A DNA stretch of 31,732 bases, taken from positions 1 to 31,732 of IMG/VR virus record IMGVR_UViG_3300027797_000086. One strand, 5' to 3'. A program made the translations under genes and the position numbers. Below, one piece after another: positions 1 to 31,732 of the stretch; positions within the stretch are counted from its first letter, which is position 1, and every line of letters starts with the position of its first letter. The DNA comes from a virus. Below the pieces are notes generated by a model, which was not told the origin of the DNA, made no database searches, and was given only the letters and a program-made list of their open reading frames with translations.

Positions 1-38
1 CCTGTCAACGCTGGACAAGAATAAGCCCAATATTATGA
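1..38 (+). CDS. gp6-like head-tail connector, C-terminal end only (partial)
   Basis: The first bases encode the last residues (C-Q-R-W-T-R-I-S-P-I-L, then TGA at 36-38) of a connector gene that is complete at 28908-29441. The nucleotides are identical to the end of that gene, so the window opens inside this gene and its body lies outside or, if the genome is circular, at the other end. The stop overlaps the next start in an ATGA arrangement. Confidence 0.75.
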   Translation, partial: CQRWTRISPIL

Positions 39-117
39 GATTAGGAAGCAAGAAAGCAAATTATGTGGATGCCAATACAATGTACTCTGAAATAGGCTTA
101 TATGTGCCTACAAGGAC
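1..117 (+). repeat. Exact direct repeat of 29404-29520 (contig-end redundancy)
   Basis: Bases 1-117 are identical to 29404-29520. From base 118 the two stretches diverge but stay homologous through the following genes. The repeat covers the end of the connector gene and the start of the head closure gene. An exact block that begins at the contig edge and ends in divergence is what an assembly graph gives when one shared segment leads into two alleles. Confidence 0.9.
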
Positions 118-376
118 TGCTGATGGGCAAGGTGGGTACATTACTACCTTTGCCTTGCAAGAAGTTGTATTTGGCGATTTTAGACCAGAGAACGAAAACA
201 GAGCATTATTGGAAGCTCAATTAAGTTTTACTCGTTCTGCTAAGTTATTTATCAGATACGATGTAACAATCAATAATAACTACCAAATAGAGGCTGAAGG
301 AGAGATGTACACGATTCATTCAATAAAGGATGTAGAGAATCAGTTTAGATTTTACGAAATAATAATGTACGCATAA
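35..376 (+). CDS. Head closure / head-tail joining protein (copy A)
   Basis: A 113-residue protein in the position and of the size of SPP1 gp16 / Phage_H_T_join adaptors, which close the head channel and join it to the tail. The sequence is beta-rich, with G-L-Y-V-P-T-R-T near residue 21, a D-F-R-P segment, and a Y-T-I-H-S-I-K-D region near the C-terminus. It overlaps the stop of the connector gene (ATGA) and its own stop overlaps the next start by one base, so it is translationally coupled on both sides. A second copy of equal length is at 29438-29779 and differs at 14 of 113 residues by my count. Family assignment rests on size, order and general look. Confidence 0.78.
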   Translation: MRLGSKKANYVDANTMYSEIGLYVPTRTADGQGGYITTFALQEVVFGDFRPENENRALLEAQLSFTRSAKLFIRYDVTINNNYQIEAEGEMYTIHSIKDVENQFRFYEIIMYA

Positions 377-939
377 TGGCAGGGATATTTTTTAATGTTA
401 CTGAGTTTGATGAGACTATACTAAAGTTAGAGAACCTAACTCAAAAACTTAAAAATCAAATTATTGATGAAACAAATGCATCTGCATTAAAGATTCAATC
501 AGAAGCTAAAAAGAATGCTCCTGCTAACTTTGGAACATTAAGAGGTTCAATACATTTAAAAGAAGAAGGGGGAATAGATAAGAAGGTTTACATAGTTGGT
601 TCGGATTTATCCTATGCACCTTATGTAGAGTTTGGCACAGGAGGTAAGGTTAATACTCAAGGATATAATGAGTTTGCTAATACCTTTAAAGGCAAGACTG
701 GTGGCACATTTCAAGATATGCTTAAAGCATTGGTATTGTGGGTAAAAAGAAAAGGTTTAGTAGGAGTATCAAAAGGCAAAAAAGGTTCAAATAAACAATA
801 TGAATCAGCAGCCTATGCAATAGCATTGAGCATATTAAGAAAAGGAATTAGACCTCAACCTTATTTAATACCTGCTTATGAGACTGAAGTTTCATTATTA
901 AAAGATAGAATTAAAAACATAGTAAATGCTCAATCCTAA
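376..939 (+). CDS. HK97 gp10-like head-tail connection protein (copy A)
   Basis: A 187-residue protein of the HK97 gp10 type, which acts in head-tail completion or at the tail terminus. Recognisable signs are the early A-L-K-I-Q-S-E-A-K-K-N-A-P segment (about residues 36-48), the L-R-G-S-I strand, Y-V-E-F-G-T-G (about 83-89), and a C-terminal R-P-Q-P-Y-L-I-P-A motif. It starts on the stop of the preceding gene (TAATG) and overlaps the next by 14 bases. The counterpart at 29779-30303 is shorter (174 residues) and clearly more diverged than the flanking genes, with an internal length difference after the W-V-K-R-K-G motif. Confidence 0.85.
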   Translation: MAGIFFNVTEFDETILKLENLTQKLKNQIIDETNASALKIQSEAKKNAPANFGTLRGSIHLKEEGGIDKKVYIVGSDLSYAPYVEFGTGGKVNTQGYNEFANTFKGKTGGTFQDMLKALVLWVKRKGLVGVSKGKKGSNKQYESAAYAIALSILRKGIRPQPYLIPAYETEVSLLKDRIKNIVNAQS

Positions 940-1333
940 TATAGAAGTAAAGAAGTGGTTTTATACTAACTTAACAAGTTCAAGTACATTGACTGTTTAT
1001 GATGGTATAGCACCAGATAATGCACCTAATGAATATATCATTATGAGTGGCAGAACTTCAAACCAAGAACAAGGCAAAATTAGTTACACTAATGGAGTTA
1101 CCATTGATGTTGACATTGTCATAAAAAATAGTAACTTTGGTTATAAAAGAGCCGAAACGATAAGCGATTTAATACTGACTGCAATCAATTCAGACACAAA
1201 CATAACCCTTACAAATGGGTTTTATGCCTCAAGTTTGGTAGTAGCAGCAATTAGAAATTTAGATGGTTTAAACCCTTTGGACAATGTCTTTAGAACGATT
1301 ATAACATATAATATAATAATAACTCAAAATTAA
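926..1333 (+). CDS. Tail completion / tail terminator protein (copy A)
   Basis: A 135-residue protein in the place and of the size of DUF3168 / gp17-like tail completion proteins, which cap the tail tube and meet the head connector. It begins M-L-N-P-N-I-E, has a Y-I-I-M-S-G strand, and a long V-T-I-D-V-D-I-V-I-K strand followed by a helix (about residues 74-90). Copy B at 30296-30703 has the same length and differs at only 9 residues by my count, so this gene is far more conserved between the copies than the gp10 gene before it. It overlaps gp10 by 14 bases. Confidence 0.75.
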   Translation: MLNPNIEVKKWFYTNLTSSSTLTVYDGIAPDNAPNEYIIMSGRTSNQEQGKISYTNGVTIDVDIVIKNSNFGYKRAETISDLILTAINSDTNITLTNGFYASSLVVAAIRNLDGLNPLDNVFRTIITYNIIITQN

Positions 1334-1338
1334 ATAAA

Positions 1339-1779
1339 ATGGCAGAAACAAAAGTATCAGCAAGGGACTATATCCTATTAGCTGACATAGACAACGATGC
1401 GACTTTCAAACCAGTTGCTTGTCTTACAACTAACTCAATGACATCAACTGTTAACACTATTGATGCAACTTCAAAATGTGGAGACCAATATCAAGCTGGT
1501 CCTTCATTTACTCAGTCTTTCAAAGGCGATGGTTTTGCAATTGATGAAACAGGAAGTCCAAGTAAGGATTCTTACCAACAATTGTATGCTGCTCACGCTG
1601 CAAAAACTGCTTTTAATATGAAGATGGGTAAAGCAACTCCAACATCTGGAGATGTTTTCTATTCAGGTCAAGTATTTATTAGCGATTTTGAAGTAAATGC
1701 TGCTGATAAAGATGATGTTAAATTTACTGCGACTTTCGTAGTTACTTTACCACCATTAACACAAACTGAACAAGCGTAA
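1339..1779 (+). CDS. Major tail tube protein (copy A)
   Basis: A 146-residue protein of the TP901-1-like tail tube type, which polymerises into the tube around the tape measure. The motif T-I-D-A-T-S-K-C-G near residues 40-48 and the D-D-V-K-F-T-A-T-F-V-V strand near the C-terminus are typical of small tube proteins, and the gene lies between tail completion and the chaperones as expected. An A-rich leader without a Shine-Dalgarno sequence precedes the ATG. Copy B (30710-31159, 149 residues) is a close homologue with scattered substitutions and a small insertion near residue 109. Confidence 0.82.
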   Translation: MAETKVSARDYILLADIDNDATFKPVACLTTNSMTSTVNTIDATSKCGDQYQAGPSFTQSFKGDGFAIDETGSPSKDSYQQLYAAHAAKTAFNMKMGKATPTSGDVFYSGQVFISDFEVNAADKDDVKFTATFVVTLPPLTQTEQA

Positions 1780-1790
1780 ATCAATAACCT

Positions 1791-2162
1791 ATGTTTGAAT
1801 TAAGACTAAACAACAACACAATTCAATTAAAATGGGGTACTTGGTCAATGCGTGAATTTTGTAACGAACGAAATATCACAATAGACAAATACTTTGAAGT
1901 TTTAGGTAGTAATCAATTTGATTTAGATATTATTGTTAAATTAATACATATCGGTTATAAATCGGCTTGTATTAGTAATAAACAGGAGATTGAATTTACT
2001 GAAAACGATGTTTGCGATTGGATAGATGAAATAGGCTCAATTTTTCAAGCTGAAGGGCAAGTACTAGCTTACTTAAAGTATATTGTGCAAAACACAGTAA
2101 CGGCAGTTCAAGGTACTCCTAAAGAAGAAAAAAAAAAGTCTAACAAGGCTAAATTGGGATGA
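1791..2162 (+). CDS. Tail assembly chaperone, upstream frame (lambda G-like, copy A)
   Basis: A 123-residue protein between the tube and tape measure genes, the standard place of the G/GT tail chaperones. It starts M-F-E-L-R-L-N-N and ends in a lysine-rich tail. A run of ten A at 2128-2137 lies just before its stop (TGA at 2160-2162), and the next frame is open from that run to 2457. A frameshift product joining both parts is therefore expected, as in many siphoviruses. Copy B is at 31170-31535. Function is assigned by position and frameshift layout. Confidence 0.8.
   Translation: MFELRLNNNTIQLKWGTWSMREFCNERNITIDKYFEVLGSNQFDLDIIVKLIHIGYKSACISNKQEIEFTENDVCDWIDEIGSIFQAEGQVLAYLKYIVQNTVTAVQGTPKEEKKKSNKAKLG
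2128..2137 (+). other. A10 frameshift site in tail chaperone (copy A)
   Basis: Ten consecutive A followed by G. Zero-frame codons are GAA AAA AAA AAG TCT. The downstream chaperone frame starts at positions congruent to 1 mod 3 while the first gene uses 0 mod 3. Joining therefore needs +1 or -2, not the usual -1. With eleven A the same junction would be -1, so one missing A or slippage of RNA polymerase on the run is an alternative. Confidence 0.7.
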
Positions 2163-2457
2163 TATTTTAGTTAAGGCTGCTGAATGTAATATACGCCCAA
2201 ACGAGTTTTGGGAGATGACTTGGAAAGACTTTTCTATTATCGTAATGGGTAAAGAAAGACAAGAGTTAAACGAATGGGCAAGGACTAGAAACCTTGCCTA
2301 TATTGTATATTTAAGTAACACTAATGAAAAATCGCCTAAGTCAATTAAGGCATTTTGGAGCATACCAGCTATTGATGATTTAGATATTGAAGAAGAAAAG
2401 GTAATGTTAACAAATGACCAATTAGCAAGGACATTAAAATTGTACGGAGTAAATTAA
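2137..2457 (+). CDS. Tail assembly chaperone, downstream frame (T-part of GT fusion, copy A)
   Basis: An open frame that continues without a stop from the A10 run to TAA at 2455-2457. An ATG exists only at 2215, but translating upstream of it gives conserved chaperone-like sequence (L-N-W-D-D-I-L-V-K-A-A-E-C, then N-E-F-W-E-M-T-W-K-D-F). The homologous stretch exists in copy B (N-E-F-W-Q-L-T-W-R-E-F). The reading upstream of the ATG is thus real protein, which supports expression by frameshift from the 1791 gene rather than from 2215. The fusion is expected to bind the tape measure and help tube assembly. Confidence 0.75.
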   Translation, partial: SLTRLNWDDILVKAAECNIRPNEFWEMTWKDFSIIVMGKERQELNEWARTRNLAYIVYLSNTNEKSPKSIKAFWSIPAIDDLDIEEEKVMLTNDQLARTLKLYGVN

Positions 2458-2463
2458 AATAAG

Positions 2464-4293
2464 ATGGCAGAGAATATTGGTTTTAATGTAAAAGTTGGAA
2501 TGGATGTTGCAGAGATACAATCTGAACTGCAAAAAGCTGAAAACCAACTTAGACAATTTCAGGCACAATTAAAAAAGTCTACCAATACTATTGAGATTAA
2601 TATGCTCAATAGAGAAATTGCTGCTTTAAATCCTCAAATATTAGCTTACGGACAAGCGTTACAAAAAGTAGGTAAACCAGTTGGTGATGCTTCTCAATCT
2701 CTAATAAACTTCTCTAGAATTGCTCAAGATGCTCCTTATGGTATAATGGGTGTTGCGAATAACTTAAACCCTATGGTTGAGTCATTCCAAAGATTAGCAA
2801 AAACTGAAGGTGGTACAAAAAAGGCATTACAAGCAATGCTTTCTGGATTAACTGGTCCTGCTGGTATTGGTGTTGCAATTGGAGTAGTTTCTTCTTTAGC
2901 AGTTACATTTAGTAAAGAAATAGTAGCATTTTTTAAAGGACCAACTGCTGAACTAGAAAAGTTTAGAGAAGAATTAAATAAAGTTGCTCAAGAAATTTAT
3001 AAATTAATTGGACAAGAGCAAACTAAAAGAACTAAGGGAATATTATTAGTTGAACTTATTACTGGTGGAAATAAAACACAAAGAGAAGAGGCATTAAAGC
3101 AATTACAAGATTTATATAATAAAAGTGATGCAATTAAAAATGCAAAACTAGGTAAAGACAAGGCTTACTATACTACTTTAGTAAACCAAGCAGCAATGCA
3201 AAATAGTGCAGTAGCTAATGAAAAAAATAATGCTGCACAATTAGATAAATTATATGAAGACCAATTAAAAAATAATAAAAAAAGAAATGATGCTTTAGCA
3301 TTAGTTACTGGTCCAAAAAAAATGATTGAATATGGACATTCTCATGTAAGGAGTATTCAATATCAAAAAGATAAAATAAATGAACAATACGATGTATTAG
3401 GAAATGACATAAAAAACAAAATTGCTACATTAGAAGCTAACACTTTTAAACAATTAGCACAAATTACTTTAACTCCTACTGCGGATTCGGTAAAAAAGAA
3501 AGGTGAAAAAACAATTGATGCTTTAGAAGAATTTAGAAAAGAACAAGAATTTGAATTACATAAACAATATTTAGATAGGCTTAAGTATAAACAATTATTT
3601 GAACAACTTGATGCATCTCCAATATTAACTTATGGTACTAAAGAAGCAATACAAGATAGAAAAGAAAATAGAAAAGAAAGAGTAAAAGATGTTACTGCTA
3701 AAGATAATAGCGTAGGAGAATTTTTAGCTAAAGATGCTGCAAAAAGAGCAAGGGAATATCAAATTGAAGATGATAAAGTAAAGGGTTTAGCTAAGTCTTA
3801 TGAGAACTTTGCAAATATGTTAGCTAGTGATGTAACAAATGGTTTAATGAATGTTTTTACTGCATTAGAGGAAGGTAAAAATCCTTTAGATGCTATTGGT
3901 CAAATGTTTCTTAATATAGCTAAAAACATAGCTGCTGCTATTATACAGGCTACTATTTTTCAAGCTATTCTTACTGCATTCCCAGAACTTAGAGCAGTAT
4001 TTAAAGCAAGTGGTGTTTTAACAAGTGCATTTGGTTATTCTGGTCCAAGAGCAACAGGTGGTATCACAAACGGACCTTCAATGGCTTTAGTAGGAGAAGC
4101 TGGGCCAGAGGCAATTATGCCTTTAAGTAAATTAAGTAACTATTTAAATACATCTTTTAATGCAGGTGCTATGAGTAGTGGTGGAACAGGAAATGGCAGT
4201 CAGTTTGTATTAAGAGGACAAGATTTACTTCTTTCAATTAATAGAGCGCAAAAGGCATCAAATCTTAAAGGACAAAATATTAGTTTAGGATAA
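2464..4293 (+). CDS. Tail tape measure protein
   Basis: A 609-residue protein, one of the longest in the window, directly after the chaperones. It has a long helical N-terminal part (residues 10-70, rich in Q, L and K), a hydrophobic stretch G-L-T-G-P-A-G-I-G-V-A-I-G-V-V-S near residue 130, a charged helical centre, a second hydrophobic region near residues 480-515, and the typical tape-measure C-terminal motif G-E-A-G-P-E-A-I-M-P-L near residue 545. It sets tail length and may help DNA delivery. From the family rule of roughly 0.15 nm per residue, the tail would be about 90 nm (inference). Its stop overlaps the next start by one base. Confidence 0.92.
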   Translation: MAENIGFNVKVGMDVAEIQSELQKAENQLRQFQAQLKKSTNTIEINMLNREIAALNPQILAYGQALQKVGKPVGDASQSLINFSRIAQDAPYGIMGVANNLNPMVESFQRLAKTEGGTKKALQAMLSGLTGPAGIGVAIGVVSSLAVTFSKEIVAFFKGPTAELEKFREELNKVAQEIYKLIGQEQTKRTKGILLVELITGGNKTQREEALKQLQDLYNKSDAIKNAKLGKDKAYYTTLVNQAAMQNSAVANEKNNAAQLDKLYEDQLKNNKKRNDALALVTGPKKMIEYGHSHVRSIQYQKDKINEQYDVLGNDIKNKIATLEANTFKQLAQITLTPTADSVKKKGEKTIDALEEFRKEQEFELHKQYLDRLKYKQLFEQLDASPILTYGTKEAIQDRKENRKERVKDVTAKDNSVGEFLAKDAAKRAREYQIEDDKVKGLAKSYENFANMLASDVTNGLMNVFTALEEGKNPLDAIGQMFLNIAKNIAAAIIQATIFQAILTAFPELRAVFKASGVLTSAFGYSGPRATGGITNGPSMALVGEAGPEAIMPLSKLSNYLNTSFNAGAMSSGGTGNGSQFVLRGQDLLLSINRAQKASNLKGQNISLG

Positions 4294-6224
4294 TGGCATA
4301 CGGATTAAGATATACAATACCACAAGAATTAAGAGATAATACAAATCTTGTAGCAAAAATATATGAAGAAGGTTATGTTGGTTCTTCTTATGAATATACT
4401 GCTACATCAATAAATATACAACCAAACTCTGCTGATGAGGATGCTTTAGCTTGTGTAATATCAACTCAATTAAATATTTCATTTATATTAAATAGTGAGG
4501 ATGATTATACTAATTTTCCTGACTTATTAAATTTTAATGATACTAAATATTATGTTGAATTAACATTAAATAATGTAATAAAATGGAGAGGTTATTTATT
4601 TAATGATTATGTAGATGTAACATTTACAACAGGAATACAAGAAGTTAATTTAACTTGTATTGATGGTTTATCGTTTTTAAGATACAATATTTATAACCCT
4701 ACTGAAAATAGCAATGGATTAATAAAGTTATTGGATTTATTTAATAATACTTTATATCTTTTGCCTTCTTACACAAGTACTTCTATGTATATGTGTTGTT
4801 CTTATTTTGCTACTGGTATGGCTAATAGAAGTGCATCTACGGATAATGACCCATTTAATCAATCGTATCAATATAGGAGAGATTTTATAGGCTTAGATTA
4901 TTATACTATTTTAGAGAACATAATGTTATCTTTTGGTTGTAGGCTATTTCAAGCAGAGGGAGATTGGTATGTATTGCCAATGAATGAAATGGCTTCAACA
5001 ATATACTATTCTAAATATGTTATAACTTCTACTACACCAACATTTAATAGTAGTGGGGTATTAAATAACTTAGTAAATATTGCACCATATTCTACAACAA
5101 GTGTTCACTTTATAAATAATAGCCAAACAAAAATAGTTAGAAAAGGTTACCCTACAATACAAAGTGTTGTTGATTTTACACCAGCTAAAAACTATATAAA
5201 TAATGGAAATTTTAAATCTGTTGTATCTTCTCAAGCAGTTGGTTGGGATGTTGCAACATCAGGTTCTTCAGTAGTTACATTAACTGAATTTCCAAGTGTT
5301 CAATTTAATAGATATAGTATATTTTACATTAGTTCTGGTTCTGCTTCAATTACAACTAATTCAGCATACTTGGCAAATATGTATGGAGGTAGTGCAACAT
5401 TTTCTTTTGATTATCAAGCAGCAAATGCAAATCAAGAAATACTTGTTATTATTACTATTACTATTGCTGGTACCTTATATTATTTAACTAGCGATTTGTA
5501 TTGGAGAACAAGTTTTGCAGTAATACCTAAAACATATACTGAAAATAATACTTACCAAACGCAATCAGTAGAAATTCCATTAGGGTTGTTGCTTTCCCCT
5601 AATCCAAACTTAACATTTCAAGGACCAATAACTATAAAGCTACAAGCTGATAGTACGCATATTGGAGGTTTTGTAAGAAATGTTATTTTAGAGCAAAATG
5701 GTTATGAAATAAAAAATGCAACAATTACTAGAACTATTGGAAATGTAAATCAGACTGCAAAATCAATAGATTTGTATTATGGATTAAATTATCCTTTAAT
5801 AGGTCAATATGAAGTTTATAATAATGTTGGTCTTATAACAAATTCAAGTGGTGTATTTTGGGCAAATTGGTATGTTCAAGGTGCTATTGGGACTACATTC
5901 TATTCATTGCCTTTTCTTATAATGAGACAATATTCAAATTTATTAAATAAAAATATAGCTACATTAGAGGGAGATTTAGGTAATTATAATAGTTCTGTTG
6001 GTTTAATTGGCTTAGATAAAGTCTATACAATAACAGATGCATCTACAAATAATTTAACTTATAATGGTAAAAAGTTTATGGCTAATAGATTAACTATGAA
6101 CCCATTTTTAGATGAAACTAATTCAATGCAGTTCTTAGAAGTTAGTAGTACTAATATAGCTTCAACTGAAACTATTGTTTATATTACTGACCAAGAACAA
6201 GAGACACCAAGAAGGTATTTTTAA
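4293..6224 (+). CDS. Distal tail / baseplate protein
   Basis: A 643-residue protein directly after the tape measure, where Dit and Tal-type baseplate proteins lie. The N-terminal third alternates beta strands (W-R-G-Y-L-F-N-D-Y, E-V-N-L-T-C-I-D-G-L-S-F-L) typical of a Dit-like or hub domain. An I-L-E-N-I-M-L-S-F-G-C segment and E-G-D-W-Y-V-L-P-M (about residues 209-230) follow, resembling hub proteins of Bacteroidota phages. The C-terminal half is beta-rich and low in charge, perhaps carbohydrate-binding. I do not see a peptidase or hydrolase motif. The exact family is not certain. Confidence 0.7.
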   Translation: MAYGLRYTIPQELRDNTNLVAKIYEEGYVGSSYEYTATSINIQPNSADEDALACVISTQLNISFILNSEDDYTNFPDLLNFNDTKYYVELTLNNVIKWRGYLFNDYVDVTFTTGIQEVNLTCIDGLSFLRYNIYNPTENSNGLIKLLDLFNNTLYLLPSYTSTSMYMCCSYFATGMANRSASTDNDPFNQSYQYRRDFIGLDYYTILENIMLSFGCRLFQAEGDWYVLPMNEMASTIYYSKYVITSTTPTFNSSGVLNNLVNIAPYSTTSVHFINNSQTKIVRKGYPTIQSVVDFTPAKNYINNGNFKSVVSSQAVGWDVATSGSSVVTLTEFPSVQFNRYSIFYISSGSASITTNSAYLANMYGGSATFSFDYQAANANQEILVIITITIAGTLYYLTSDLYWRTSFAVIPKTYTENNTYQTQSVEIPLGLLLSPNPNLTFQGPITIKLQADSTHIGGFVRNVILEQNGYEIKNATITRTIGNVNQTAKSIDLYYGLNYPLIGQYEVYNNVGLITNSSGVFWANWYVQGAIGTTFYSLPFLIMRQYSNLLNKNIATLEGDLGNYNSSVGLIGLDKVYTITDASTNNLTYNGKKFMANRLTMNPFLDETNSMQFLEVSSTNIASTETIVYITDQEQETPRRYF

Positions 6225-6237
6225 TATTAATATAGTT

Positions 6238-6245
6238 TAACTTTG
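6238..6245 (+). promoter_or_regulatory. Bacteroidota -7 element (TAACTTTG) close to ATG
   Basis: The octamer fits TAnnTTTG and ends four bases before the ATG at 6250. No clear -33 TTTG is visible at the usual distance. If used, transcription would begin about at the start codon and the message would be leaderless. It lies in one of the few gaps of the structural array. Confidence 0.45.
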
Positions 6246-6249
6246 CAAT

Positions 6250-7410
6250 ATGGCAGATAAAGTACAAGGTAATAATATGATTCTCTATTGGCAAAATCCC
6301 AATGGACAATTCTATCTAAATGGTGGCATATCACAAGGCACAATAGGTGGTAATTCTTACTATGAATTAAGTTCTACTGAGAATGTAGGAAGTAGTGCTA
6401 ACTTCGTTGCAACAGGAGATAATATAATAGCTAGGTTTATTACAGATGTAAATAAGCCTAATTTGACTACTATTCCTGCTGGAACTTGGAATTTTAGTTC
6501 CTATGTATCTATTACAACAAATTTAACAGGTAGCCCAGCATTTTATTATATAGTATATAAATATGATGGAACAACCTTTACATCTTTAGCAAGTAGTACT
6601 GCAACGACCTTAACATCAACATCTATAACATTATATAATACTTCTATAAGTTTTCCTGCAACAGCATTATCTGCAAGTGATAGAATAGTTGTTATGGTTT
6701 ACCCTCAAAATGTAAGTACTAGAAATATTACTTTTTATACACAAGGAAATAATGTAGCTAGTGTAGTAACTACAATGCCAACTGATATTCCCTTTGCTTG
6801 TTCAACAAATTGTTCTTTCTCGGTTAATGTGGACCAGAAAGAAGTAACATCTCAAACAAGTGCTTGGTATCGTGAATTTAAGAACGACATAGCTAATTGG
6901 AGTGTGAATTGCGATGGATTAATAACATTAGAAAACTATGGTTATTTATACTTATTGCAAACGCAACAAAATAGAACACAAATAGCGATTAAATTTGCTA
7001 TTGACAATGGGGTAGATGGGTTGGTAATTATAGGTGGAAATTGTAATCTTACGAGTTTACAAATCAATGCTCCTTATAAGGACATAGGTACTTATTCAGT
7101 AGGTTTACAAGGTTCAGGTGCTTATACAACTTCAGGAGTATCAATAAATCAAAATGGCGAGATAGTAACAGTAACTGGTCAAGTGTATATGAAATCTTCA
7201 ACGGCAGCAGGAGGAGAAACTACTATTACTTATGCAGATATGATAGGAAAGATTTGTCTAGGCTTTACAAGAGGTGGTGTAGAAGTAAGAGAGATTTTAA
7301 CAACAGGAACTCCTACAAACGACCAGATTAAGTTTAATAGTACAAGTGGTGTAGTTACTTTCGGAAGGGCATTAGAGGCTGATGAATTTATTAGAGGAAT
7401 ATTTCAATAA
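6250..7410 (+). CDS. Tail protein with receptor-type module and tube-like C-terminal domain
   Basis: A 386-residue protein with two parts. Residues about 20-178 form a beta-sandwich-like module (Y-L-N-G-G-I-S-Q-G-T-I-G-G, then Y-K-Y-D-G-T-T-F, then S-D-R-I-V-V-M-V-Y) that is clearly paralogous to residues 58-217 of the next gene. Residues about 185-386 resemble a tail tube protein of the TP901-1 type (D-Q-K-E-V-T-S-Q-T-S-A-W with F-K-N-D-I-A-N-W-S-V-N-C-D-G-L). A plausible role is a decorated tube-like or baseplate element displaying a fibre module. It sits between the distal tail protein and the fibre. The domain assignments are by eye. Confidence 0.65.
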   Translation: MADKVQGNNMILYWQNPNGQFYLNGGISQGTIGGNSYYELSSTENVGSSANFVATGDNIIARFITDVNKPNLTTIPAGTWNFSSYVSITTNLTGSPAFYYIVYKYDGTTFTSLASSTATTLTSTSITLYNTSISFPATALSASDRIVVMVYPQNVSTRNITFYTQGNNVASVVTTMPTDIPFACSTNCSFSVNVDQKEVTSQTSAWYREFKNDIANWSVNCDGLITLENYGYLYLLQTQQNRTQIAIKFAIDNGVDGLVIIGGNCNLTSLQINAPYKDIGTYSVGLQGSGAYTTSGVSINQNGEIVTVTGQVYMKSSTAAGGETTITYADMIGKICLGFTRGGVEVREILTTGTPTNDQIKFNSTSGVVTFGRALEADEFIRGIFQ

Positions 7411-7415
7411 TTAAT

Positions 7416-10400
7416 ATGAGCAATCAATTACAAATAACAGGAGCAGCGAAAATAAGGGATTTACAAGGACCAGTGGTTTCAAATTCTGGAGTGATTTCTG
7501 CTTTAGATGGAGATGCTTCTCAATATGTACGAGGAGATGGTACTTTAGCTGATTTCCCTACATCAACAGGTGGAGGTAGTTCAGTTTCTTATTATCTTAA
7601 CACAAGTGTAAGTCAAGGTACAATAGGTGGGGTTGCTTATAAACAATTAAGTAAAGTTCCTATTAGTGGTGCTGGAACCGATGTTAGTACTTCGGCTAAT
7701 GGTTACATAGCTAGTTATATTACGGATGCTAATGACCCTGCTTTATTAGAAGTACCTGCTGGAAACTTTAATTGTGAGTTTTATTTTAGTGTAAACTCTG
7801 ATGCTCACAATCCTTATGTTTATGCAGAAGTATATAAGTATGACGGAACAACTTTTACTTTATTAGGTAGTAGTCAAAGTGTTCCTGAGTATTTAAGTAA
7901 TGGAACTACATTAAGTCCTTATTACTTTGCAATAGCTGTTTCTAGTTCTGTTTTAACTGTAACGGATAGAATAGCAATTAGAATCTATGTAAATGTAGAT
8001 GGTAGAACTGTTACTTTACATACCGAGAATAATCATTTGTGTCAAGTAGTTACTACTTTCTCTAAGGGGTTAATCTCTTTAAATAACCTTACTAGACAAA
8101 ATCAATTCTTTGCAACAGGCACAAGTGGAACTGACTTTGCTATATCAAGTGCAACGGCTACTCATACTTTTAACTTGCCTGTGGCTTCGGCTTCAAATAC
8201 TGGTAAGTTAAGTTCAACGGATTGGAGTACATTTAATAGCAAGGTTGGTGGTAGTGGCTCTGATGGTAGAGTAGCATTTTGGACTGGTGCAAGTACTTTA
8301 AGTAGTGATGCTAATTTATATTATGATTATTCTACCGATAGATTAGGAATAGGTACTAATACTCCTAATGCAAGTTTAGGGATATTAAACGCTAGTTCAA
8401 CAGGTATTCAAGTAAGAACTTCAGATAGTGCAAACCAATATCAAGCAAATATCTTTTACGATGCCTCTTATGGTATGGTTTATGGGTATAATAGACTAGG
8501 CACAGGTACGGCTAGTAATTTAACTTTCTTTAATAACATAGGTGGTTTTATATCTATTCCTGAAAGTGCTACTAATAACATAGGTTTTAATACTTTAAAT
8601 CCTCAGGGTTTAGCAAGTGCATCTGTGTATGACTTTACTTCTTTAAATACAAATGTAGAATTAAGACTACATAATTCATCAACAGGATATACTTCAACAG
8701 ATGGTTCTTACATAAGAGTAACTTCTACTGCTTTAGTAATAGGTAATGATGAATCAAGTAAAAGTATTTTAATAAATAATGGTGGCAATGGTGTTGTTAC
8801 TATTGATGGTACAAATAAAGTAGCATTAGGGAATATAGGTTCAATACCTATGACACAACAATTAACTGTTGTAGGTTCAATAGAAGCCTATGGTGGTTCT
8901 ATCTATCAGACTGTAACATCTAGTATGTTAAAGGCTAATGCTTCAGGACAAATTATTGCTGCCATTGCAGGAACAGATTATTTAGCAGTAGGTAGTGCAG
9001 TTACAAGTGTAAGTGCTACGAGTCCTGTTTTATCAAGTGGTGGAACTACTCCTAATATTTCAATCCCTGCTGCAACAACTTCGGTTAGTGGTTATTTGAC
9101 TTCTACGGATTGGACAACTTTTAACAACAAGTTTACTTTACCTTCTTTAACTCAAGGTTCTATATTATTTAGTGATGGTTCAACCATTGCTCAAAATAAT
9201 AACAGGTTATTTTGGAATAATACAAATATGAGATTAGGTGTTGGTACACAACCTGTGTCTCAATATGTAATGTATGTAAAAGCAAATATTGGAGAAAATG
9301 GAAATGCTTGGTTGGGTATTGAAAATGAAAATACAACAGGTTCTACTGCGGTAAGATTATTATTAAATGGTGGCACAGTTGCTGGATTTCAGTATATACA
9401 ATCTACAAACACTACTGAAGTTTTTGCTCAATCAGGTAATATACGAATAGTTAATGCTTCTAGTCTTGGTTTAGTAATAGCAGATACAACTGGTGCTGCA
9501 ACTTTTAGTGCTAGTGCAACTGCTACATCTTTTGTTAAATCAGGTGGTACAAGTTCACAATTCTTAAAGGCAGATGGTTCAGTTGATTCTACTGCTTATG
9601 GCACAGGTTCGGTTACTTCAGTAGCTACATCTGCTCCATTAACAGGAGGTACTATTACAACTTCAGGAACAATAGGTATAACACAAGCTACAACAAGCAC
9701 AAATGGTTATCTATCATCAACTGATTGGAATACTTTTAATAATAAAACAACATTACCATCTTTAACAAGTGGTTCAGTATTGTTTAGCAATGGTTCAACT
9801 ATTGCTCAAGACAATGCTAATTTCTTTTGGGATGATGTAAATAATAGATTAGGCATAGGAACTGCAACACCTGAACAAATTTTACATATTGTTGGTGCAA
9901 GTGCAATAGTTTATATAGATGGTAATAGTGCTGGTACTCAAACAAGTTCAACTTTAAGATTAAGAACAGGTGGATTTAATGTAGGTAATTTTAGATATAA
10001 TGTAGCTACTGACAATATTGAAATAAGTAATATTTCAGGAGGTGGTGCAGTAACAAGTGGTGCAGTTAAAATATATGGCACAGGTGGTAGCACAACAGGT
10101 TTAACAATAGCAGCAGCAGGAGAATCTACTTTTAGTCAAAAAATTCAAATTAGTACAGGTGGTTTAAGAATTGGAACTTCTGCAACAGAAAACGATAGAT
10201 TAATTGTAGTAAATGGAACAAATTTAACAAGTGGCTCAAGTCAATATTTAGAAGTTATTGCTCCAACATATACTGGTAATATAACTAATTTATATGGAAG
10301 ATTACAATATGCAACCTGTGATAGTGGTACTATTAGTAATGCATATATGCTATATTTGGGTTCTTGGAGTGGGACATCAACTTACTCTAATAAGTGGTCT

Positions 10401-11762
10401 ATTTACCAAGAATCTACTACTGAAAAAAACTACTTTGGTTCTGCTGTATTAATAGGAACTAATACCAATTCAGGCTACAAGCTAGATGTTAGTGGTACAG
10501 GTAGATTTTACCAACCATTAACAAACTCTACTTCATATTTAGTAGTAGAAAATAATAGGGCTAGAAATGCAGCAGTTTATACTGCAACTACTAATGGTGG
10601 TTTTTATGCTGGTACTTCAATAGGAACAGATACTTTTAATTATCAAATTTATGATGGTGTTGCAGGTTCAGCTCGTTTAACAATAGCCTCTACAGGAGCA
10701 GCTACATTCTCAAATAATGTTGGTATAAATGGTGGTTCAACAAATTTCCCTTTAGTAGTAAAAGTTGCTACAAATCAAAACCTAAGAATTTCTACGGAAA
10801 CATCAACATCAGTTCAAGCAATAAATGATGCAGTTAGTGCTTTTGTTACCTTAAAAGTAGATGGTTTGCCATTATTACTAAATAGCCAAAGCGGTGGTAA
10901 TGTTGGAATCGGAACGAGTAGTCCAAGTGCAGGATTGGAAGTAGTTACGAATAGTGGTACATATAATGCTTTAAGATTAGTTTCAAATAGAGCCTATAAT
11001 TTAAGTACAGATGTTGCATTGACTTTTAGATATTTATATGATACAACAAATTATACTTCAGGCGGTTTAATAGTTGTTGCAAAAGATAATACCACAATTT
11101 CAAATCAAAGTGGTAATATGCAATTTTATACCAATAATGCAGGAACAGTTGCAGAAAGAATGCGTATTACAAGTGATGGTAGATTATCATTAAAAAGAGG
11201 AGGCGGTACTGTTAATTTTGACGTATTTCTAAGTGGTGGTGGTGATAATTTTTGTGATGTAGATGGAGAAGTATTTAGAACTAAAGCATTTTTACCCCTT
11301 GCAGATAATGCTTATGCTATTGGTTCAAGCGGTTCAAGATGGACTGCTGTATGGGCTGTTAATGGTTCAATTCAGACTTCAGATGAAAGAGAAAAGAAAG
11401 ACATTGTTAACTCTGATTTAGGATTAGATTTTGTAAGTAAATTAAGACCAGTATCTTTTAAATGGAAAATTGGTCAAAATATTGTTACAAATGAAACTAT
11501 TATTGATGAAGAAGGTAATGAAACTGTTAAAGAGGTAATAACTCCAAGAGAAGGTAAAAGAACTCATTATGGATTAATTGCTCAAGAAGTTGAAGCTTTA
11601 TTGGATGGTAAAGATTTTGGTGGATTTATTAGTGATGAAGAAACTGGATTAAAAGGGTTAAGATATGACCAATTTGTTCCATTATTAATAAAGTCAATTC
11701 AAGAACAACAAGCACAAATAGAAGAACTATCTAATAGATTAATCAAACTAGAAAACAAATAA
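7416..11762 (+). CDS. Tail fibre with C-terminal S74 intramolecular chaperone
   Basis: A 1448-residue adhesin and the largest gene. Residues 58-217 share the beta module of the preceding protein. Then come repeated fibre modules: S-S-T-D-W-S-T-F-N-S-K (near 265), T-S-T-D-W-T-T-F-N-N-K (near 562) and S-S-T-D-W-N-T-F-N-N-K (near 768), each followed by R-L-G-I-G-T-like turns (near 309, 606, 813, and N-V-G-I-G-T near 1163). The C-terminus is a peptidase S74 domain: S-D-E-R-E-K with Ser1322 and Lys1327 in the endosialidase spacing, then H-Y-G-L-I-A-Q-E-V-E and a final coiled coil (about 1420-1448). By family knowledge the domain trimerises the fibre and cuts itself off before Asp1323. It probably binds the host surface. 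Confidence 0.92.
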   Translation: MSNQLQITGAAKIRDLQGPVVSNSGVISALDGDASQYVRGDGTLADFPTSTGGGSSVSYYLNTSVSQGTIGGVAYKQLSKVPISGAGTDVSTSANGYIASYITDANDPALLEVPAGNFNCEFYFSVNSDAHNPYVYAEVYKYDGTTFTLLGSSQSVPEYLSNGTTLSPYYFAIAVSSSVLTVTDRIAIRIYVNVDGRTVTLHTENNHLCQVVTTFSKGLISLNNLTRQNQFFATGTSGTDFAISSATATHTFNLPVASASNTGKLSSTDWSTFNSKVGGSGSDGRVAFWTGASTLSSDANLYYDYSTDRLGIGTNTPNASLGILNASSTGIQVRTSDSANQYQANIFYDASYGMVYGYNRLGTGTASNLTFFNNIGGFISIPESATNNIGFNTLNPQGLASASVYDFTSLNTNVELRLHNSSTGYTSTDGSYIRVTSTALVIGNDESSKSILINNGGNGVVTIDGTNKVALGNIGSIPMTQQLTVVGSIEAYGGSIYQTVTSSMLKANASGQIIAAIAGTDYLAVGSAVTSVSATSPVLSSGGTTPNISIPAATTSVSGYLTSTDWTTFNNKFTLPSLTQGSILFSDGSTIAQNNNRLFWNNTNMRLGVGTQPVSQYVMYVKANIGENGNAWLGIENENTTGSTAVRLLLNGGTVAGFQYIQSTNTTEVFAQSGNIRIVNASSLGLVIADTTGAATFSASATATSFVKSGGTSSQFLKADGSVDSTAYGTGSVTSVATSAPLTGGTITTSGTIGITQATTSTNGYLSSTDWNTFNNKTTLPSLTSGSVLFSNGSTIAQDNANFFWDDVNNRLGIGTATPEQILHIVGASAIVYIDGNSAGTQTSSTLRLRTGGFNVGNFRYNVATDNIEISNISGGGAVTSGAVKIYGTGGSTTGLTIAAAGESTFSQKIQISTGGLRIGTSATENDRLIVVNGTNLTSGSSQYLEVIAPTYTGNITNLYGRLQYATCDSGTISNAYMLYLGSWSGTSTYSNKWSIYQESTTEKNYFGSAVLIGTNTNSGYKLDVSGTGRFYQPLTNSTSYLVVENNRARNAAVYTATTNGGFYAGTSIGTDTFNYQIYDGVAGSARLTIASTGAATFSNNVGINGGSTNFPLVVKVATNQNLRISTETSTSVQAINDAVSAFVTLKVDGLPLLLNSQSGGNVGIGTSSPSAGLEVVTNSGTYNALRLVSNRAYNLSTDVALTFRYLYDTTNYTSGGLIVVAKDNTTISNQSGNMQFYTNNAGTVAERMRITSDGRLSLKRGGGTVNFDVFLSGGGDNFCDVDGEVFRTKAFLPLADNAYAIGSSGSRWTAVWAVNGSIQTSDEREKKDIVNSDLGLDFVSKLRPVSFKWKIGQNIVTNETIIDEEGNETVKEVITPREGKRTHYGLIAQEVEALLDGKDFGGFISDEETGLKGLRYDQFVPLLIKSIQEQQAQIEELSNRLIKLENK

Positions 11763-16233: not shown

Positions 16234-16257
16234 GTTGTTTTTTCTTGTTCATAGGTT

Positions 16258-16287
16258 CTCCTCAGTGTAAAAAGCTGGGGAGTTTTT
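16258..16287 (+). terminator. Intrinsic terminator of the late operon
   Basis: CTCCTCAG (16258-16265) pairs with CTGGGGAG (16275-16282) with one G-T wobble and a 9-base loop, followed by five T. It lies 25 bases after the metallopeptidase stop and would end the transcript of the structural and lysis genes. Confidence 0.8.
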
Positions 16288-16289
16288 AT

Positions 16290-16297
16290 TATATTTG
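16290..16297 (+). promoter_or_regulatory. -7-like element (TATATTTG) between two terminators
   Basis: The octamer fits TAnnTTTG and lies directly after the first terminator and 25 bases before the second hairpin. No -33 box is seen. If active, it would give only a short RNA (about 16303-16355). Confidence 0.3.
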
Positions 16298-16322
16298 TAT
16301 TCAGATATACTAATGGTTTAAC

Positions 16323-16355
16323 GGAGGTTCGTTTTTACGATGCCTCCCTTTTTTT
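16323..16355 (+). terminator. Second intrinsic terminator
   Basis: GGAGG (16323-16327) pairs with CCTCC (16343-16347). Inside it TCGT pairs with ACGA around a TTTT loop, with a small internal loop between the two stems. Seven T follow (16349-16355). It is a strong terminator in tandem with the one at 16258. Confidence 0.8.
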
Positions 16356-16379
16356 GCTCTTATGTTATAATATCCCTTA

Positions 16380-16411
16380 AAAGTAACATAACAATACCCA
16401 TATGTTACTTT
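16380..16411. repeat. Perfect 11-bp inverted repeat (GTAAC/GTTAC arms)
   Basis: AAAGTAACATA at 16380-16390 and TATGTTACTTT at 16401-16411 are exact reverse complements with ten bases between. Centre-to-centre spacing is about two helical turns, which fits a dimeric protein binding site on one DNA face. Confidence 0.7.
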
Positions 16412-16479
16412 AATGACACATTATCGTATGAATAAGTGTATCAATCATACAATTATATGCAGGAAATTATAATTTGGGT

Positions 16480-16494
16480 ATCACAATTTGTGAT
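16480..16494. promoter_or_regulatory. Palindromic operator candidate ATCACAA-T-TTGTGAT
   Basis: A perfect 7-bp inverted repeat around one central base. Two bases further lies TTCACG-AATC-CGTGAA (16496-16511), and the arms GTTCAC (16495-16500) and GTGAAC (16524-16529) are also inverted. GTAGTT-T-AACTAC (16536-16548) and AACAAA-T-TTTGTT (16557-16569) follow. Such a row of short dyads is typical for repressor or replication-protein binding. Confidence 0.5.
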
Positions 16495-16723
16495 GTTCAC
16501 GAATCCGTGAAAGGTTTAAAAATGTGAACACTTGCGTAGTTTAACTACCAACAATTAACAAATTTTGTTACAAGTCTATATAAATCAGTAACATATATAC
16601 CCTAATTCTGTTACAATATTTTACATATTGTACCTAAAACATTGTACAATGTTCCCAATTTGGTTACAAAAGTTCGCTAATAGTAAACTTATCAATCATA
16701 AAAGTTACCCAATAAAGCAACTT

Positions 16724-16752
16724 TGAGCCGTATTTGACCGATAATCGGCTCA
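16724..16752. repeat. Inverted repeat TGAGCCG/CGGCTCA
   Basis: A 7-bp stem (16724-16730 with 16746-16752) encloses a 15-base loop. Inside it, CCGAT-A-ATCGG (16738-16748) is an alternative palindrome that excludes the outer stem. No T-run follows, so it is not a normal terminator. It may be a protein site or a cruciform. Confidence 0.45.
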
Positions 16753-16836
16753 TTTATGACTGATATATACCTAACTGCTTGATTATCAAAGAATAGACTA
16801 ATTAACATAACTTTAACTAAAATAATTTAAATAATT

Positions 16837-16869: not shown

Positions 16870-16912
16870 TTAAAACAAACAGAGAGGCACTCTTAAAACT
16901 GCACCATTAGTT

Positions 16913-17200: not shown

Positions 17201-17250
17201 CCCTCAAAGGTAGGGATGCGACTACTCAACGCATATTTTAAATAACCATT

Positions 17251-28907: not shown

Positions 28908-29441
28908 ATGGCATATTCTAATTTTATTATAGATTTTACTTTAACCGATATAGGTACTGTGGTTGAACCAGTAACATTAGCAGAGGCTAAATTGTATTGC
29001 AGAGTAACTACTTCCGTTGATGATAACCAAATCTCTTTAATGATTAAACAAGCAAGAGAAGCCATTGAAGTAGGCACAGGCTTGAGTTTAATACCTAAGA
29101 CTGCCGTTGTTTGGTTTACTAATTTTAATGGTGGTTTTAATCTTCCTTATGGACCAGTTAATAGTTTTACTTCATTAATAGATGAAAATAACGATACAAT
29201 AGTAGCTGCTGATTATACTTTAGTAGGTGGTAAGTTTCCACAATTACAAAGACCTCCTTTTAAAAACTTAAAGGCTACTTATGTGGTTGGATATGCAACT
29301 GTCCCTAATGACTTAAAGATTGCTATTTTAGACCAAGTAAGCTACGATTACGAGAATAGAGGATTAGATTCAAATACAGGTATTTGTGAAAAGTCTTGGA
29401 AAGCCTGTCAACGCTGGACAAGAATAAGCCCAATATTATGA
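28908..29441 (+). CDS. Head-tail connector, gp6-like
   Basis: A 177-residue protein of the HK97 gp6 / SPP1 gp15 type. It has the motif V-T-L-A-E-A-K-L-Y-C-R-V (about residues 23-34), then D-N-Q-I-S-L-M-I-K-Q-A-R-E-A-I-E helix, and the late helix L-K-I-A-I-L-D-Q-V-S-Y-D-Y-E-N-R. The adaptor ring sits under the portal. Its last bases are the same as the first bases of the window, and its stop overlaps the head closure start (ATGA). Confidence 0.85.
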   Translation: MAYSNFIIDFTLTDIGTVVEPVTLAEAKLYCRVTTSVDDNQISLMIKQAREAIEVGTGLSLIPKTAVVWFTNFNGGFNLPYGPVNSFTSLIDENNDTIVAADYTLVGGKFPQLQRPPFKNLKATYVVGYATVPNDLKIAILDQVSYDYENRGLDSNTGICEKSWKACQRWTRISPIL

Positions 29442-29520
29442 GATTAGGAAGCAAGAAAGCAAATTATGTGGATGCCAATACAATGTACTCTGAAATAGGC
29501 TTATATGTGCCTACAAGGAC
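29404..29520 (+). repeat. Exact direct repeat of 1-117
   Basis: This stretch is identical to the first 117 bases of the window. The distance between copies, 29,403 bases, is the likely unit genome length if the molecule is circular or concatemeric. Divergence starts at 29521. Confidence 0.9.
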
Positions 29521-29779
29521 ATCTGATGGGCAAGGTGGCTTTACGACTACCTTTGCCTTGCAAGAAGTTGTATTTGGTGATTTTCGCCCTGAAAATCAAA
29601 ATAGAGCATTATTAGAGGCTCAATTAAGTTTTACTCGTTCTGCTAAGTTATATATCAGGTGCAATGTAACAATCAACAATAATTACCAAATAGAGGTAAA
29701 TGGTGATAGATATACAATACACTCTATTAAGGATGTAGAGGACCAGTTTAGATTTTATGAAATATTAATGTACTTCTAA
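29438..29779 (+). CDS. Head closure / head-tail joining protein (copy B)
   Basis: A 113-residue homologue of the 35-376 protein. The first 27 residues are identical, and 14 differences fall in the remaining part. I place the start at ATG 29438, matching copy A; an upstream ATG at 29396 in the same frame would overlap the connector gene by 46 bases. Role as in copy A. Its stop overlaps the next start by one base, as there. Confidence 0.78.
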   Translation: MRLGSKKANYVDANTMYSEIGLYVPTRTSDGQGGFTTTFALQEVVFGDFRPENQNRALLEAQLSFTRSAKLYIRCNVTINNNYQIEVNGDRYTIHSIKDVEDQFRFYEILMYF

Positions 29780-30303
29780 TGGCATTTGCAGTAAGTTTAA
29801 GTGGGATGAAGCAACTTGAAGGAAAGTTAAATAAATTAACTACTGCATTAAAGGAAGATGTAAGTAATGAAATAAATGCATCTGCACTTAAAATAGAGAA
29901 TCAAGCTAAAAAATTAGCACCTATTAATTTAGGTCAATTAAGAAATTCAATAGCATTAACAAAAGATAGTGAATTAACATATACAGTTGCAGCAAACGCT
30001 TCATACTCTGCTTATGTTGAATTTGGCACAGGACCACAAGTAAATGTTCCAGCTGACTTTTCATCTTATGCTCAACAATTTAAAGGCAAAAGTGGTGGCA
30101 AGTTTAAAGATATGGTTGATGCCTTAACTTTATGGGTAAAACGAAAGGGAATAGGTAATGGTAAAAATGATAAGGGTTTAGCTTATGTAATAGCTTTAAG
30201 CATACTAAGAAAAGGTATGCGACCTCAACCATTCTTAATACCAGCCTATGAAATGGAAAAACCCAAACTTATACAAAGACTAAATAAATTATTAAATGCT
30301 TAA
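29779..30303 (+). CDS. HK97 gp10-like protein (copy B, diverged allele)
   Basis: A 174-residue homologue of 376-939, with the same landmarks (Y-V-E-F-G-T-G, W-V-K-R-K-G, R-P-Q-P-F-L-I-P-A) but many substitutions and fewer residues after W-V-K-R-K-G. The divergence is much larger than in the head closure gene before and the tail completion gene after it, so the gp10 gene appears to be a mosaic segment. It overlaps the next gene by eight bases. Confidence 0.85.
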   Translation: MAFAVSLSGMKQLEGKLNKLTTALKEDVSNEINASALKIENQAKKLAPINLGQLRNSIALTKDSELTYTVAANASYSAYVEFGTGPQVNVPADFSSYAQQFKGKSGGKFKDMVDALTLWVKRKGIGNGKNDKGLAYVIALSILRKGMRPQPFLIPAYEMEKPKLIQRLNKLLNA

Positions 30304-30703
30304 TCCTAATATAGAAATAAAGAAATGGTTTTATACTAACTTGACAAGTTCAAGTGCATTGCCTGTTTATGATGGCATAGCACCTGATAATGCACCTAAT
30401 GAATATATCATTATGAGTGGCAGAACTTCTAATCAGGATCAAGGTAAAATCAGCTATACTAACTCGGTTACCATTGATGTTGACATTGTCATAAAAAATA
30501 GTAACTTTGGTTATAAAAGAGCCGAAACGATAAGCGATTTAATACTAAATGCAATCAATTCAGACACAAACATAACCCTTGCAAATGGGTTTTATGCTTC
30601 AAGTTTGGTGGTAGGTGCAATTAGGAATTTAGATGGTTTAAACCCTTTGGACAACGTATTTAGAACAATAATAACTTATAATTTAATAATAACTCAAAAT
30701 TAA
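30296..30703 (+). CDS. Tail completion / tail terminator protein (copy B)
   Basis: A 135-residue homologue of 926-1333 with nine substitutions by my count, all mild (for example V8I, E48D, I130L) except a few in the first 60 residues. At the nucleotide level a stretch of more than 70 bases in the middle is identical. The close match between two diverged neighbours suggests recent recombination or strong constraint here. Confidence 0.75.
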   Translation: MLNPNIEIKKWFYTNLTSSSALPVYDGIAPDNAPNEYIIMSGRTSNQDQGKISYTNSVTIDVDIVIKNSNFGYKRAETISDLILNAINSDTNITLANGFYASSLVVGAIRNLDGLNPLDNVFRTIITYNLIITQN

Positions 30704-30709
30704 AATAAA

Positions 30710-31159
30710 ATGGCAGAAACTAAAGTAAGCGGTAGAGATTACATCCTACTTGCAGACATAAACAACGATGGTACTTTTTTACCAGTTGCTTGTTTAACTA
30801 CAAACTCATTGACATCAACTAACGACACTATTGATGCAACTTCTAAGTGTGGTAATCAATACCAACCTAGTCCAGTATTTTCTCAATCTTTTGATTGTGA
30901 AGGTTTTGCAATTGATGAAACAGGAACTCCTAGTAAGGATTCTTACCAACAATTATATGTTGCTCATTCTGCAAAGACTTTATTTGCTATCAAAATGGGT
31001 AAAGCAACTCCAACTTCTGGAGATATTACTTATGGTGGTGCTGGTCAATTAGTGTTTATTAGCGATTTTGGAGTGCAAGCAGATGATGGTGATGATGTTA
31101 AATTTACTGCAACATTCGTAGTAAGTGTTCCACCAATTACACAAACTGAAACTGCATAA
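30710..31159 (+). CDS. Major tail tube protein (copy B)
   Basis: A 149-residue homologue of 1339-1779 with the same landmarks (T-I-D-A-T-S-K-C-G, D-S-Y-Q-Q-L-Y, D-D-V-K-F-T-A-T-F-V-V). It has an insertion of a few residues at Y-G-G-A-G-Q-L (near residue 109). If both copies belonged to one virion, it would have two tube proteins, which is rare, so alternative alleles is the easier reading. Confidence 0.82.
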   Translation: MAETKVSGRDYILLADINNDGTFLPVACLTTNSLTSTNDTIDATSKCGNQYQPSPVFSQSFDCEGFAIDETGTPSKDSYQQLYVAHSAKTLFAIKMGKATPTSGDITYGGAGQLVFISDFGVQADDGDDVKFTATFVVSVPPITQTETA

Positions 31160-31169: not shown

Positions 31170-31535
31170 ATGTTTGAATTAAGACTGGACAACAACAAAA
31201 CAATCCCCCTAAAATGGGGTACTTGGGCGATGAAAAGATTTTGCGAATTAGAGAATAAATCTCTTTTAGACTTAATCAATATTTTATCAAGTGGTGCTTT
31301 TGAATTAGGAACGATAGTGCATATAATACAAGCATCTGCCGAAAGTGGATGCAAAACACTAAATCAACCAATTGAATTTAACGATGTTATCGTTTGTGAT
31401 TGGATAGATGAAGTGGGAGGATTATCTGCAAAAGATGGTCAGCTAATAGATTTTATTAAATTTATGCAGACATCAATGGTTCCTGAAACAAAAGAAAATG
31501 CCGAAGTAACAAAGGATAAAGGAAAAAAAAAATAG
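31170..31535 (+). CDS. Tail assembly chaperone, upstream frame (copy B)
   Basis: A 121-residue homologue of 1791-2162. Both start M-F-E-L-R-L and share L-K-W-G-T-W near residues 13-18 and V-C-D-W-I-D-E further on, but they are clearly diverged. The lysine-rich end runs into an A10 run (31523-31532) followed directly by TAG. The -1 frame is open from this run to the end of the window, the classic chaperone arrangement. Confidence 0.8.
   Translation: MFELRLDNNKTIPLKWGTWAMKRFCELENKSLLDLINILSSGAFELGTIVHIIQASAESGCKTLNQPIEFNDVIVCDWIDEVGGLSAKDGQLIDFIKFMQTSMVPETKENAEVTKDKGKKK
31523..31532 (+). other. A10 slippery run (-1 frameshift, copy B)
   Basis: Ten A then T. Zero-frame codons are GGA AAA AAA AAA TAG, so A-AAA-AAA (31526-31532) is a canonical -1 slippery heptamer next to a stop codon. 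Slipping back one base continues as I-G-I-Y-S-W-D-S. Confidence 0.75.
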
Positions 31536-31732
31536 GAATTTATAGCTGGGATTCAATAATTATTCTCGCAATAGAAGTTGGCTTGACAATTAATGAGTTT
31601 TGGCAACTTACTTGGCGGGAATTTTTATTATATAAAAAGGCTTATGAGAATCAGCAGATAAAGGAGTGGGAAAGGACAAGAACTTTAGCTTATATGATTT
31701 ATAGGTCTAATTCAACGGATAAAAATCAGAAA
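31532..31732 (+). CDS. Tail assembly chaperone, downstream frame (copy B, partial)
   Basis: An open frame from the A10 run to the window edge with no stop. Its sequence (I-N-E-F-W-Q-L-T-W-R-E-F, then E-W-E-R-T-R-T-L-A-Y-M-I-Y) matches the copy A downstream part (R-P-N-E-F-W-E-M-T-W-K-D-F, then E-W-A-R-T-R-N-L-A-Y-I-V-Y). It has no start codon of its own at the 5' end and so depends on frameshifting. It is cut by the end of the window. Confidence 0.75.
   Translation, partial: MGIYSWDSIIILAIEVGLTINEFWQLTWREFLLYKKAYENQQIKEWERTRTLAYMIYRSNSTDKNQK

What the first reader, a model, noticed from the sequence alone, without database searches (positions are those of the whole stretch)
1..2457. Contig ends carry two diverged alleles of the same head-tail module
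Genes at 1-2457 and 29404-31732 are the same five to six genes in the same order. The first 117 bases are identical to 29404-29520, after which the copies diverge. This is not normal terminal redundancy (which would be identical). It fits a 29,403-bp circular or headful genome in a mixed population, where assembly ran from allele A round to allele B. Alternatively it is a real tandem duplication giving two tube and chaperone sets.
Basis: partly seen in the sequence, partly recalled or inferred. Interest (0 to 1): 0.75.

Follow-up and report, generated by a model that had tools for sequence, protein, structure and literature searches.

The report
Two phage strains joined during assembly
The two similar gene sets at the two ends of this phage sequence are alternative versions of one neck-and-tail gene block from two closely related strains, joined by the assembly software at a stretch both strains share, and not a duplication carried by one virus.

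Summary
In detail: bases 1-117 equal 29404-29520 exactly, and 1-1850 aligns with 29404-31232 at 78.5%, same genes, same order. The window is the whole IMG/VR record. Eight of 13 checked have exact terminal overlaps of 55, 63, 123 or 127 bases, the mark of a circle cut by a k-mer assembler. One of these, G002, carries the B-type block alone, running into a tape measure gene. The 117-mer recurs exactly in 18 loci behind the same connector. A toy graph puts the k=117 branch node exactly at 1-117. Tandem duplication is not supported. Reads could not be examined. Among relatives, neck-tail genes are swapped extensively. In passing: both copies' chaperone genes end at the same A10 run but need opposite frame changes.

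The parts
1..117 (+). First copy of the 117-base word shared by both alleles (last 38 bases of the connector gene and start of the head-closure gene); equals the k=117 branch node
   Evidence: Exact identity to 29404-29520; exact in 18 relative loci; toy graph node
29404..29520 (+). Second copy of the 117-base word; here it follows the intact connector gene
35..376 (+). Head-closure / head completion protein, allele A
   Evidence: PF05521 3e-8, phrog_25
376..939 (+). HK97-gp10-like neck/tail completion protein, allele A
   Evidence: PF04883 6e-11, phrog_5
926..1333 (+). Tail terminator, allele A
   Evidence: phrog_176 1e-6
1339..1779 (+). Tail tube protein, allele A
   Evidence: PF06199, phrog_1407
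1791..2162 (+). Tail assembly chaperone, G-like, allele A
   Evidence: Position between tube and tape measure, A10 run near the 3' end, T-like frame beyond; no family hit
2128..2137 (+). A10 run of chaperone A; downstream T-like frame lies +1 (or -2)
2101..2457 (+). T-like open frame of copy A (listed ORF 2215-2457), reached by a frame change at the A10 run
2464..4293 (+). Tape measure-like protein following module A
   Evidence: Position and length; no Pfam hit; 100% identical relatives in L004-L006
28908..29441 (+). Head-tail connector, conserved anchor in front of the exchangeable block
   Evidence: PF05135, phrog_442; 83-100% in the best 80 relatives
29438..29779 (+). Head-closure protein, allele B
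   Evidence: Continues the 117-base word; 97-100% in B-type relatives
29779..30303 (+). HK97-gp10-like protein, allele B
   Evidence: PF04883 6e-12
30296..30703 (+). Tail terminator, allele B
   Evidence: 91% DNA identity to 926-1333
30710..31159 (+). Tail tube protein, allele B
   Evidence: phrog_1407 4e-18
31170..31535 (+). Tail assembly chaperone, G-like, allele B
   Evidence: 98% in single-module relatives L085, L095, L168
31523..31532 (+). A10 run of chaperone B, directly before its TAG; T-like frame lies -1
31520..31732 (+). T-like open frame of copy B, cut by the end of the record; in relatives it continues and is followed by a tape measure gene

Best explanation
The record is one circular (or circularly permuted) phage genome of about 29,403 bp plus about 2.3 kb from a second, co-occurring strain. 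The two strains share the connector end and the start of the head-closure gene, then carry different alleles of one neck-tail block. In a de Bruijn graph that shared 117-base word is a node with one way in and two ways out. The contig starts at the node on branch A, goes once round the circle, re-enters the node and leaves on branch B until it stops inside chaperone B's T-like frame. Shown here: the repeat and its exact length, the node position in a toy graph, single-module circular relatives, and both allele types behind the same connector elsewhere. Inferred: the assembler's k and path, and that both strains were in one sample. The alleles differ because this phage group exchanges neck-tail genes by recombination; an ERF-family annealing protein and a NinG homologue are encoded and could promote it (inference).
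For: (1) 25 long relative records (16-31.7 kb) searched whole: each has exactly one tube match and one connector match. No fetched locus holds two copies of any module gene; 172 loci show connector and tube together. (2) Exact terminal overlaps of 127 (G001, G002, G005, G013, G008), 123 (G014), 63 (G009) and 55 bases (G007), with break points at different places of the map: circles of about 27.7-31.6 kb cut by k-mer assemblers. CheckV's authors report such odd-numbered overlaps and explain them by k (PMC8116208). (3) G002, circular by overlap, matches window 27484-31727 contiguously at 93.5%: B block only, then tape measure. The last 200 bases of the window occur at 97-99.5% in about 20 loci; in the 12 nonredundant B-type loci with a tape measure it starts 403 nt after the chaperone stop in every one, in the 7 A-type loci 302 nt. 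(4) L006 links capsid protein (100%), connector (99%), an A-type block and a 100% identical tape measure on one contig: the closure of circle A in another sample, except that its tail terminator is of another type. (5) The 117-mer is exact in 18 loci behind the same connector sequence, with either continuation. (6) In a toy graph of circle A and a B variant, the k=117 out-branch node is exactly 1-117.
Against: No reads, depth or assembly graph could be examined. k=117 was not seen among the eight overlaps measured in relatives (55, 63, 123, 127); at k=127 the contig should start 10 bases earlier, so another assembler setting or slight trimming must be assumed. The contig that would continue beyond 31732 was not found. 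Enrichment of contig ends at this spot in relatives is weak.
Confidence: 0.93

Rival explanations
1. A true tandem duplication: one genome carries both neck-tail modules and makes two tube and chaperone sets.
For: Both copies are intact as far as they reach, so neither looks decayed.
Against: No relative has two copies. Copy A would have to begin with a 38-base stub of the connector gene exactly where the record happens to begin. B-type chaperones are followed by a tape measure at a fixed distance in every relative where both are present. Each allele type occurs alone elsewhere.
Confidence: 0.03
2. Not a graph branch but a linear genome whose terminal repeats have diverged.
For: The copies lie at the two ends of the record.
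Against: Terminal repeats are regenerated from each other and stay identical (general knowledge); here gp10-like genes are 59% and chaperones 55% identical. Relatives' contig ends lie all round the map, not at this spot.
Confidence: 0.01
3. A refinement rather than a rival: the 29.4-kb backbone is itself a patchwork of several strains, so that copy A need not be the allele of the strain that supplies the rest.
For: Module genes are exchanged widely in this group. Copy A's exact combination (tail terminator type 1 with gp10 type 3) is not seen in another locus of the core set.
Against: L006 joins a near-identical connector, an A-type block and an identical tape measure. L022 has a 100% identical tail terminator next to an A-like gp10 and tube, so such a mosaic exists outside this record.
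Confidence: 0.25

Closest known systems
k-mer-length terminal overlap of circular viral contigs (CheckV, PMC8116208)
   Same: A circle is cut at an arbitrary point and the contig ends repeat a word of odd length set by the assembler; relatives here show 127, 123, 63 and 55
   Different: Here the repeated word is 117 bases and is followed by 2.2 kb of a different allele, so an end check calls the record linear
Microdiversity-driven branching in short-read viral assemblies (PMC6487183)
   Same: Sequence shared between co-occurring strains makes unresolved branches in the graph
   Different: Instead of breaking the genome, the branch gave an over-long contig carrying both alleles
Flavobacterium phage 11b and Cellulophaga phage phi10:1
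   Same: Terminase 53% and 50% identical over 99% of the query; related capsid protein; same order of terminase, portal, protease, capsid, connector and neck-tail genes, single module annotated
   Different: Larger genomes (36 and 54 kb); no DNA-level match of window 1-8000 to any cultured phage record; phi10:1 has A8G, not A10, at the chaperone frame change
Lambda G/GT tail assembly chaperones
   Same: Two overlapping frames between tail tube and tape measure, joined by a frame change near the end of the first
   Different: A run of exactly ten A instead of a lambda-type heptamer, and both frame directions within one phage group

Membership tests
Circular genome cut by a k-mer assembler | Exact repeat at both extreme ends of the record | tested here: not met
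   The extreme ends do not match; the 117-base repeat lies at the start and 2.2 kb inside the other end
Circular genome cut by a k-mer assembler | Relatives of similar length close as circles with k-length terminal repeats | tested here: met
   55, 63, 123 and 127 bases in eight of 13 relatives checked
Strain-mixture contig | Each allele type occurs alone in the same slot in other genomes | tested here: met
   A-type in L004-L006, B-type in G002, L085, L095, L168
Strain-mixture contig | Read depths of the two copies add up to the backbone's, and no molecule carries both | not testable with these tools
   No reads available
Tandem module duplication | Two modules on one molecule in at least one independent genome | tested here: not met
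   0 of 25 long records
Lambda-like G/GT chaperone pair | Second frame open across the first frame's stop and a slippery run in the overlap | tested here: met
   Open in 119 of 119 loci with both frames identified; A10 in 117, A9 in 2
Lambda-like G/GT chaperone pair | Both products made, in a fixed ratio | not testable with these tools
   Needs expression data
Headful-packaging phage | Circularly permuted, terminally redundant virion DNA | not testable with these tools
   Circular maps only; needs virion DNA ends

The most novel reading that the evidence does not exclude
The duplication is an artefact, but the two chaperone alleles it exposes use one invariant A10 run to reach T-like frames in opposite directions (+1 or -2 in type A, -1 in type B). 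That would fit RNA polymerase slippage, which can both add and drop A residues, making the G/GT switch in this phage group transcriptional and indifferent to direction.
Probability: 0.45. Interest if true: 0.55.

Novelty: new member of a known kind. Interest (0 to 1): 0.3.

Why it matters
The record should not be cited as a phage with duplicated tail genes, and its length (31.7 kb) overstates the genome by about 2.3 kb. End-repeat checks miss such contigs because the extreme ends differ; looking for an internal match of the contig start is a simple extra test. The two alleles give a real view of how a widespread group of uncultured phages related to Flavobacterium phage 11b swaps neck and tail genes: tube, chaperones and tape measure travel together, while capsid and distal tail genes are only weakly tied to them.

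Tried and rejected
Search of cultured phage DNA with window 1-8000: no match. Exact search for the last 44 bases of the window in viral contigs, to find the continuing contig and read k directly: no match. Host search by terminase in one genome each of 84,980 species: no relative, so the host stays inferred from the Flavobacterium and Cellulophaga phages. Enrichment of contig ends at the branch point in relatives: somewhat dense from -122 to +60 but not distinctive; the largest pile-up lies 500-600 bases upstream, so not used as evidence. The A10 run in cultured relatives: phi10:1 has A8G, 11b shows no such run between tube and tape measure. tRNAs and Rfam families in the window: none.

Full report
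What was checked. The window is the whole of one IMG/VR virus record, 31,732 bases, classed linear. Its first 117 bases are identical to 29404-29520, the copies differ from base 118, and 1-1850 aligns with 29404-31232 at 78.5%. Both copies encode head closure, HK97-gp10-like, tail terminator, tail tube and a G-like tail chaperone with a T-like second frame. Divergence is uneven: 83, 59, 91, 77 and 55% in DNA. Such a long collinear match cannot be chance.

Is it two modules in one genome? Four scans of viral contigs with the two tubes, the connector and the tape measure brought 283 loci. None has two copies of any module gene, and 172 show connector and tube together (some are overlapping cuts of one contig, and many of the tape measure hits are distant and lack the module). 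Searching 25 long records whole gave one tube and one connector in each. Eight of them were read in full: six have exact terminal overlaps (127, 127, 127, 127, 123, 55), and of five more checked at their ends two have 127 and 63. These are circular maps of about 27.7-31.6 kb, bracketing the size predicted for circle A (29,403). CheckV's authors attribute such odd-numbered overlaps to the assembler's k-mer (PMC8116208).

Are both modules alleles of the same slot? G002, a circle of about 28.2 kb, matches window 27484-31727 without interruption at 93.5% and then goes into its own tape measure; the B block is its only one. The last 200 bases of the window occur at 97-99.5% in about 20 loci. In the 12 nonredundant loci with a B-type chaperone and a tape measure, the distance from chaperone stop to tape measure start is always 403; in the 7 A-type loci it is always 302. 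L006 joins the window's capsid protein (100%), connector (99%), an A-type block and an identical tape measure on one contig, which is the closure the circle model needs. The 117-mer is found exactly in 18 loci, after the same connector sequence wherever the contig reaches that far, and is followed by either continuation.

How the record arose. With node words of 117 bases, circle A and a B variant share one out-branching node, at exactly 1-117 (the B variant was given A's backbone, so only the left branch point is informative). A path that starts there on branch A, runs round and leaves on branch B gives this record's start and its inner repeat with nothing left over. At k=127 the contig should start 10 bases earlier, so the setting was probably 117 or the end was trimmed; this is inference. 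A tandem duplication would instead need copy A to begin with a 38-base stub of the connector gene precisely at the record's first base.

Why the alleles differ. Among 80 nonredundant relatives whose connector is at least 83% identical, gene-by-gene distances show that tube, both chaperone frames and tape measure travel together (rank correlations 0.62-0.88), while capsid and connector are only weakly tied to them (0.18-0.30) and the distal tail protein is nearly unlinked to tube and chaperones (0.03-0.05). These correlations carry no significance test and share phylogeny, so only the contrast matters. With allele types cut at fixed identities there are 46 combinations among 82 entries, somewhat inflated by genes missing at contig ends. 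Copy B has the same types as five single-module contigs (L085, L093, L094, L095, L168). Copy A differs from L005 and L006 in its tail terminator only. The genome encodes an ERF-family annealing protein (18492-19046, PF04404 1e-25) and a NinG homologue (21974-22354, PF05766 2e-28), which could promote such exchange; that is inference.

A second thing the two copies show. Each chaperone gene ends near a run of exactly ten A (2128-2137; 31523-31532), the only runs of nine or more A or T in the window. In 119 relatives with both frames, the run is A10 in 117 and A9 in 2; there are only 121 A10 runs in the 1.3 Mb of these loci. The second frame lies +1 (or -2) in 62 loci, all with the run end at the same distance from the stop, and -1 in 57, nearly all with the stop at or one base behind the run. 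The two classes largely follow the chaperone types of copy A and copy B. Lambda and its kin use -1 ribosomal frameshifting here, and +1 is thought likely for one archaeal virus (PMC5009743). Runs of nine or ten A are known or proposed sites of RNA polymerase slippage, as in dnaX of Thermus and of species with ten A (PMC3711429). A fixed run length with two directions fits transcriptional slippage, but ribosomal slippage is not excluded.

Verdict. The duplication is not a feature of one virus. Interest is low for the finding itself and moderate for the A10 run.

Noticed in passing
2128-2137 and 31523-31532: Both chaperone copies end at an A10 run, conserved as A10 in 117 of 119 relatives, but the T-like frame lies +1 (or -2) in 62 and -1 in 57 of them. 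One invariant run serving both directions suggests transcriptional slippage.
   Followed up: partly
2464-4293 and relatives L004-L218: The tape measure is far more variable (median pairwise identity 32%) than the capsid protein (81%) among the same loci, and co-varies with the chaperones.
   Followed up: partly
18492-19046 and 21974-22354: ERF-family single-strand annealing protein and NinG homologue in a genome with strong module exchange.
   Followed up: no
9089-9238 and 9704-9853: A 150-base direct repeat, 73% identical, inside the 1448-aa tail protein gene 7416-11762.
   Followed up: no
16234-16912 and 17201-17674: Two stretches without a listed ORF of 60 aa or more in an otherwise dense genome, partly conserved in G001 at 81-96% DNA identity; no tRNA or Rfam match.
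   Followed up: no
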